A stretch of 64,000 nt of DNA from Phyto melanocephala (lineage: Eukaryota > Arthropoda > Insecta > Diptera > Rhinophoridae): assembly GCA_941918925.1 (NCBI GenBank), contig OW799236.1, positions 68,848,465 through 68,912,464 on the forward strand. The letters run 5' to 3'. This document shows positions 56,972 through 58,099 of this stretch, in pieces (positions within the stretch are counted from its first letter, which is position 1; each line of letters opens with the position of its first letter). Made by a program: the position numbers and the translations under genes. The notes under the pieces were generated by a model. The model was not told the DNA's origin and ran no database searches. It saw only the letters and a program-made list of their open reading frames with translations.

Positions 56972-58099
56972 TCAATATGCTCCTATTTTGTCTACAATTT
57001 CTAATATGGACTCATAAAAAGATTCAAACGACTCAGACGGCTTTTGTTTTCTATTACGTAATTCCTCTCGTAATTCAAACTGGTTTCTGCTGTCCTTATA
57101 GTTATAACGTAATGCCGCACAAAATGATTCCCAGGTTATAACTTCTACCTGCTTACGATAACGCCAAAACCATTCTCTGGCTTTACCCGTTAGCAAACTG
57201 TTTAAGTTTCGACACACAAGTTCAAAATTATTATTAAAAGTTTCATTCGTTAGGCAACGAATACGGTAGATAAATTCTTCACACCGCAACCCGGATGAAG
57301 AACCATCAAAACAAACGTTCCAGCTCTGAATTATATTAGTAACTTTGTCGGGACTTAAATTTAAGGGATTTGCAAAAGAACTATTTAGTGGTGGAGTTGA
57401 ATTCAAATTGAGTGGAAAATTTAAATTCTGTGAACCATTTGGTTGAGCACAATTTGCAACTGCTGGTTGTGGTTGCCGAGGAGCCGAACTATTAAGATTA
57501 ATATTTGCTAACGCTCTAGCAACTGCAGACTCAACCATTTGCGAAATTTGTGCATTTTCTACATGCCTATTGCGATTTCTATTAACCTTGCGAGGTCTTC
57601 TCAGAGGCCTTTTATTAGAATTATGCGACGAATTGTGATTATTAGAAGTATTTGAAAACTGAATATGATCAAAATTTATTTCCGGGGATTGGTTACGATT
57701 TGAATTAAGTGGTGCTACATTTTGGTCTGAATGGGCTACTACCGTTTTTCTGATATTTTCTACATTCTGACTTGAAATTATAGATTTTGTATTATAACTA
57801 CGAGTAACTGGTCGATTTACAACACCTTTACTACTAGCAGATTGAATTGTCATTGCTCCTTTACCAACATTGTCACTTACGGGCCTAAGATCCCGTTTAT
57901 GACACAATCTCCTACAATTTGGACACTCCGTTGAGGTTTCTAACCAACTTAGAATGCAATCCCTGTGAAAGGTGTGTTTGCATAATGTTTGCAATGTTTC
58001 TGTTGCGTTAGACAGACTTAATTCGCAAACTGAACAAGCGAGTCCAATTGCGCCTTCGAGACTAGATGGAATATTTTCATTGCTGTTTGTGACAACCAT
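56972..58099 (-). pseudogene. gag: Element B Gag with N-terminal RING-H2 finger, ended by in-frame UGA
   Basis: 375 codons from ATG 58099 to TGA 56972-56974. Residues 22-62 form a textbook RING-H2 finger: C22-x2-C25-x14-C40-x-H42-x2-H45-x2-C48-x10-C59-x2-C62, with the Phe before H45 (HTFHRDC), the Trp-Leu after C48 (ILSWL) and the CPNCR end typical of E2-binding ubiquitin ligases. A disordered Ser/Asn-rich linker follows, with a basic patch at about 163-179 (possible nuclear or RNA-binding signal). The capsid domain from about 259 (SWNVCFDG, ARWFWRY-like EWFWRYRKQ) is homologous to that of element A Gag. The UGA falls within the capsid C-terminal part; the frame then continues in 56480-56971. 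The RING is absent from element A. Ubiquitin-ligase activity of the Gag is inference from the motif. Confidence 0.92.
57914..58036 (-). other. RING-H2 finger coding segment (domain)
   Basis: The codons for residues 22-62 of element B Gag. All eight zinc ligands are present with standard spacing, so the finger should fold. It lies at the extreme N-terminus, before any capsid homology, as a separate module. Confidence 0.9.

What the first reader, a model, noticed from the sequence alone, without database searches (positions are those of the whole stretch)
56972..58099. Retrotransposon Gag with a complete N-terminal RING-H2 (ubiquitin-ligase-type) finger
Seen directly: eight zinc ligands with RING-H2 spacing (residues 22-62), with the Trp and the CPxCR end that in known RING ligases help to bind the E2, fused in one frame to a basic linker and a Ty3/gypsy capsid and nucleocapsid. 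Known: Gag proteins normally recruit host ubiquitin ligases, and viral RING proteins (ICP0-like) degrade host restriction factors. Inference: this Gag could ubiquitinate itself for trafficking or assembly, or target host silencing or restriction factors. The related element A in the same locus lacks it, so the module was gained or lost within the lineage. I do not know a described insect Ty3/gypsy Gag of this design.
Basis: partly seen in the sequence, partly recalled or inferred. Interest (0 to 1): 0.88.

Follow-up and report, generated by a model that had tools for sequence, protein, structure and literature searches.

The report
RING-finger Gag of fly retrotransposons
A fly retrotransposon carries a genuine ubiquitin-ligase-type RING finger at the front of its capsid (Gag) protein; many related fly elements have the same design and keep it under selection, but the design was already noted in print in 2013 and its function is untested.

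Summary
The RING is real. The ORF at 56972-58099 (minus strand) begins with a complete RING-H2 finger (Pfam zf-RING_2, E 2.4e-11), then a disordered linker and a Ty3-type capsid. It is no one-off capture: 120 of 128 public relatives keep all eight zinc ligands, and so do 57 of 60 gag stretches fetched from the window's own 740 Mb genome (stretches picked mostly to reach the N-terminus). The RING is under purifying selection as strong as the capsid's (dN/dS 0.095 and 0.090; linker 0.49), and its divergence tracks the capsid's. A related lineage that includes the neighbouring element A lacks it (0 of 61). The window's copy is young but damaged: in-frame stops in gag and pol, nested in element A's LTR. 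Likeliest mechanism, inferred: a RING E3 ligase brought together when Gag assembles. New here: breadth and strength of constraint.

The parts
57909..58042 (-). RING-H2 finger, about residues 20-63 of Gag
   Evidence: Pfam zf-RING_2 residues 21-63; AlphaFold block means 91-97 for residues 21-70
56972..58099 (-). Gag ORF as it stands: RING, linker, capsid up to an in-frame TGA at 56974-56972
56480..56971 (-). rest of the gag frame after the TGA: end of capsid and CCHC-type knuckles
   Evidence: open frame; no Pfam match to the 154-aa ORF in it; knuckles seen by eye and aligned with relatives
55890..56561 (-). protease part of pol, ending in an in-frame TGA at 55892-55890
   Evidence: RVP only weak, E 0.053, below cut-off
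52995..55889 (-). pol: reverse transcriptase, RNase H, integrase
   Evidence: Pfam on 52998-55748; open frame
58795..58812 (-). primer-binding site TGGCGCCCAACGTGGGGC
   Evidence: its 15-base core is found 408 times in the genome, reversed control 0
58821..62127 (-). 5' LTR, 3307 bp, TG...CA
48173..52886 (-). 3' LTR, with an insert at 49601-50997
62128..62131 (-). target-site duplication GTGG; second copy at 48169-48172
   Evidence: single copy at the uninterrupted site in element A's other LTR

Best explanation
Element B is a young, now damaged insertion of an Osvaldo-type Ty3/gypsy retrotransposon whose Gag is built as RING-H2, disordered linker, capsid, zinc knuckles. Shown: the RING is a regularly inherited part of this Gag lineage and is kept by purifying selection. 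Inferred: it works as a RING E3 ubiquitin ligase that binds a host E2 by the usual face; when Gag molecules assemble through their capsids the RINGs are brought close together, which switches on many known RING ligases (recalled). Substrate inferred and uncertain: most likely Gag itself or proteins held in or near the particle (turnover or release of particles), less likely a dedicated attack on a host silencing factor.
Against: No activity or E2 binding was tested. Trp in the loop in only 14 of 120. Foldseek alone gave no match at E <= 0.001, best 2.9e-3 to the TRAF6 RING. BMI-1-type RINGs, which are poor ligases (recalled), are among the sequence matches. 2 of 13 supported RING-tree splits conflict with a supported capsid split. 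The sister lineage does without a RING.
Confidence: 0.55

Rival explanations
1. The RING is a binding or dimerising module only: it holds Gag molecules together, recruits a host protein or binds nucleic acid, without ligase activity.
For: The Trp is usually absent (14 of 120), and non-catalytic RINGs such as BMI-1 are among the matches. Constraint would look the same.
Against: The other ligase-type residues are mostly kept: CPxC 113 of 120, K or R after the last Cys 94 of 120.
Confidence: 0.25
2. The RING is an active ligase aimed mainly at a host defence factor (silencing or restriction), as ICP0 is in herpesviruses.
For: Kept by selection. Element B has no room for env, 108 bases between pol stop and 3' LTR, so a budding role is less obvious.
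Against: No host target known; the related RING-less lineage thrives as well (61 public relatives). No sign of rapid RING evolution, as an arms race might give.
Confidence: 0.18
3. Chance motif or one-off capture of a host exon by this copy.
For: None found.
Against: Found in many diverged families in this genome and in named proteins of Calliphora vicina, Lucilia cuprina, Stomoxys calcitrans, Musca autumnalis and Haematobia irritans.
Confidence: 0.02

Closest known systems
Cv_Isis-like, Osvaldo lineage, Calliphora vicina (PMC3630058); probably UniProt A0A0K3CT45, our P0108
   Same: RING in Gag, long LTRs (2577 and 2574 bp), 4-bp duplication, no env (passage). P0108 is 531 aa, has RING and Gag domains and is 36% identical to the window Gag over 371 residues.
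   Different: Different family: LTR 3307 bp here; the published copy's frames are described as whole, this one has in-frame stops; loop Trp here, not in P0108. That P0108 is the published Gag is inferred from species, length and design.
Osvaldo and Isis of Drosophila buzzatii
   Same: PMC3630058 says the RING is present in Osvaldo and absent in Isis, the same split as element B and element A.
   Different: Their sequences were not held, so no direct comparison was made.
Cellular RING ligases such as RNF126, RNF4, AMFR, RING1B
   Same: Ligand pattern, fold and E2-contact positions.
   Different: Here the RING is fused to a retrotransposon capsid; the donor gene was not found.
TRIM5-type capsid-associated ligases (recalled)
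   Same: Works-like only: a RING held in a lattice of repeated units.
   Different: TRIM5 is a host factor that binds a foreign capsid; here the RING is part of the capsid protein.

Membership tests
RING-H2 finger | Eight ligands C3H2C3 with cross-brace spacing | tested here: met
   120 of 128 public relatives
RING-H2 finger | RING fold | tested here: met
RING E3 ubiquitin ligase | Ubiquitin transfer with an E2 | not testable with these tools
   needs a bench assay
Ty3/gypsy LTR retrotransposon | LTRs, Gag, RT-RNase H-integrase order | tested here: met
Osvaldo lineage | Long LTRs (997-2055 bp in Culex, PMC3286476; about 2575 bp in Cv_Isis-like) | tested here: met
   3307 bp, longer than those quoted (passages)
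Osvaldo lineage | PBS complementary to tRNA-Lys | tested here: inconclusive
   match to tRNA-Lys is recalled; the two tRNA patterns found nothing in the genome and ARAGORN none in 8 loci
Osvaldo lineage | RT tree groups it with Osvaldo | not tested
   no Osvaldo sequence was held
Osvaldo lineage | Gag related to that of a published member | tested here: met
   36% over 371 residues with P0108, taken to be Cv_Isis-like Gag
ICP0-like viral RING effector | Degrades host defence proteins | not testable with these tools
   analogy only, recalled

The most novel reading that the evidence does not exclude
Osvaldo-type Gags are a large, old family of transposon-encoded E3 ligases that become active when Gag assembles, so that each particle is a ubiquitinating shell, much like a TRIM5-type lattice turned to the element's own use, and controls particle fate or disables host factors that touch it.
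Probability: 0.3. Interest if true: 0.8.

Novelty: new member of a known kind. Interest (0 to 1): 0.42.

Why it matters
If the RING is active, a mobile element carries its own ubiquitin ligase in its main structural protein and has kept it across fly families, which makes the role of ubiquitin in retrotransposon particles directly testable. It also warns annotators: Gags of this design already stand in databases as E3 ligases of Calliphora vicina and Lucilia cuprina (P0108, P0152).

Tried and rejected
Chance motif: rejected. One-off capture: rejected. Relaxed ligands: rejected for the clade, though single decayed copies exist: L040 lost one ligand, L053 the first two, L060 has no N-terminus in its open frame; public P0139 and P0140 each lost one. 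That element A's N-terminus (M-x-T-R-S and the like in 22 of 51) equals the N-T-R-S box behind the RING was a guess; MAFFT did not align the two, so it is not claimed. Relatives in viral contigs: 101 pattern matches, none confirmed. Host donor of the RING: not found; no search for it was made beyond solved structures. Papers: searches; passages read of PMC3630058, PMC12910113, PMC3286476 and PMC3098803; the rest seen as listings only. PMC12910113 has 'RING' among the labels of its element figure without saying, in the passages seen, for which element. The original Osvaldo and Isis papers were not seen.

Selection and losses. The 60 stretches were chosen from the 124 match rows (itself a lower bound, 109 of 1025 candidates scored), mostly rows reaching the N-terminus, so 57 of 60 is not an unbiased rate. 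L040, L053 and L060 were dropped before the ligand count and dN/dS. The 128 public proteins are those listed; one search listed 120 of 235. The 104 sequences are what remained of 175 after thinning at 85% capsid identity, all chosen to have the RING pattern, so their 104 of 104 ligands is by choice. In one search, 51 of 62 element-A-lineage sequences entered the tree; the others were short or fused to pol. Pfam was run on 9 of the 61 A-lineage proteins and element A.

Full report

The element. LTRs are 58821-62127 and 48173-52886, TG...CA; two aligned stretches of 1901 and 1429 columns hold 4 mismatches and 4 gap openings (the first runs about 10 bases past the LTR start), so the insertion is recent. 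The target-site duplication is GTGG. [quoted passage not shown] The primer site TGGCGCCCAACGTGGGGC lies 8 bases inside the LTR end. Its 15-base core occurs 408 times in the genome (188 and 220 on the two strands), the reversed control 0 times. That it matches tRNA-Lys is recalled; attempts to find the host gene failed. Between pol stop and 3' LTR there are 108 bases, so no env.

How widespread. The first protein search gave 28 relatives, 25 of them with RING Pfam labels. The second, with an alignment, gave 235, of which 120 were listed. In the 128 proteins listed by the two, 120 have all eight ligands; of the other 8, 3 are fragments without the N-terminus, 3 start inside the RING and 2 have lost one ligand. 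The window's own genome gave 124 match rows, a lower bound. Of 60 gag stretches fetched, 57 carry all eight ligands. Five copies 98-99% identical to the window ORF have open frames of 555-608 aa, so among these six the stop is private to the window's copy.

Selection. On 58 sequences (57 stretches and the window) I computed Nei-Gojobori dN/dS in 6 independent pairs out of 16 pairs with dS between 0.05 and 0.9. Pooled: RING 0.095 (bootstrap 0.044-0.177), capsid 0.090 (0.057-0.133), linker 0.487 (0.369-0.673), helix and second linker 0.432 (0.300-0.627), remainder 0.290 (0.206-0.414). Without the window's pair the RING value is 0.104. Fisher tests on rounded counts: RING against linker p = 7e-5, RING against capsid p = 0.85. 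The RING pool is small: about 33 silent and 15 replacement changes. RING and capsid distances among 104 non-redundant sequences correlate (r = 0.66, 0 of 2000 permutations). Of 13 RING-tree splits with support of 0.9 or more, 9 are in the capsid tree and 2 conflict with a supported capsid split; in all 22 of 101 splits are shared, as expected of so short a domain. So the RING has mostly travelled with the capsid, perhaps with some swapping.

Ligase features. In this copy V24, W52, P60 and R63 sit where known ligases touch the E2 (roles recalled). Among the 120 public proteins: I/V/L two after the first Cys 108, CPxC 113, K or R after the last Cys 94, Trp in the loop 14; among the 57 fetched stretches 56, 53, 43 and 18. 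Trp at the aligned position occurs in 16 of 104 non-redundant sequences, all within one capsid-tree group of 20 (support 0.974) that holds the window. Two further cysteines, at positions 35 and 66, are kept in 87 and 93 of 104; the window has the second only.

The RING-less lineage. Element A's Gag has 61 public relatives, none with the RING pattern in the first 260 residues. Pfam on 9 of them and element A gives no RING, apart from weak matches, below cut-off, of one C3HC4 family (zf-C3HC4_IRF-2BP1_2) at the nucleocapsid. Capsids fall into the two lineages (51 against 104, support 0.928); the tree is unrooted, so gain and loss cannot be told apart. Between elements A and B pol is 48.6% identical over 662 residues and Gag 27% over 182.

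Prior art. [quoted passage not shown] P0108 is a 531-aa C. vicina UniProt entry named E3 ubiquitin-protein ligase with RING and Gag domains, 36% identical to the window Gag over 371 residues; that it is the published Gag is inferred. In the searches I saw no paper that tests the function; the library holds open-licence papers only.

Verdict. Real, conserved and constrained, but a further member of a described design. The best mechanism is an assembly-activated RING E3 within Gag. Shown: the domain, its inheritance and its constraint. Inferred: E2 binding, activity, activation by assembly and the substrate.

Noticed in passing
window 49601-50997: 1397-bp insert in the 3' LTR with inverted ends CAGAGACCTGCGCC / GGCGCAGGTCTCTG and an 8-bp duplication GTATATGG; the 5' LTR has the empty site. 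Looks like a hAT-type non-autonomous element (type recalled).
   Followed up: partly
window 38038-48172 and 62128-62700: Element B sits inside the 5' LTR of element A, whose LTRs are 99.75% alike over 2019 columns.
   Followed up: yes
positions 35 and 66 of the Gag family: Two extra cysteines besides the zinc ligands are kept in 87 and 93 of 104 sequences; the role is unknown.
   Followed up: no
P0108, P0152: RING-Gags named in databases as E3 ubiquitin-protein ligase (Calliphora vicina) and putative ligase ATL44 (Lucilia cuprina); annotated as if host genes.
   Followed up: partly
G000 contig C6, 2.87-6.63 Mb: 20 of the 124 match rows lie in this small part of a 26.9-Mb contig.
   Followed up: no
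window 52886-52994: No purine run right before the 3' LTR, where a polypurine tract is expected (by eye).
   Followed up: no
PMC3630058, supplementary legend: The legend also marks a RING finger in a C. vicina Pao element, so RINGs may have entered a second LTR superfamily (passage).
   Followed up: no
window 4281-4784, + strand: 167-aa open frame that reads like the RNase H end of a non-LTR retrotransposon (by eye).
   Followed up: no
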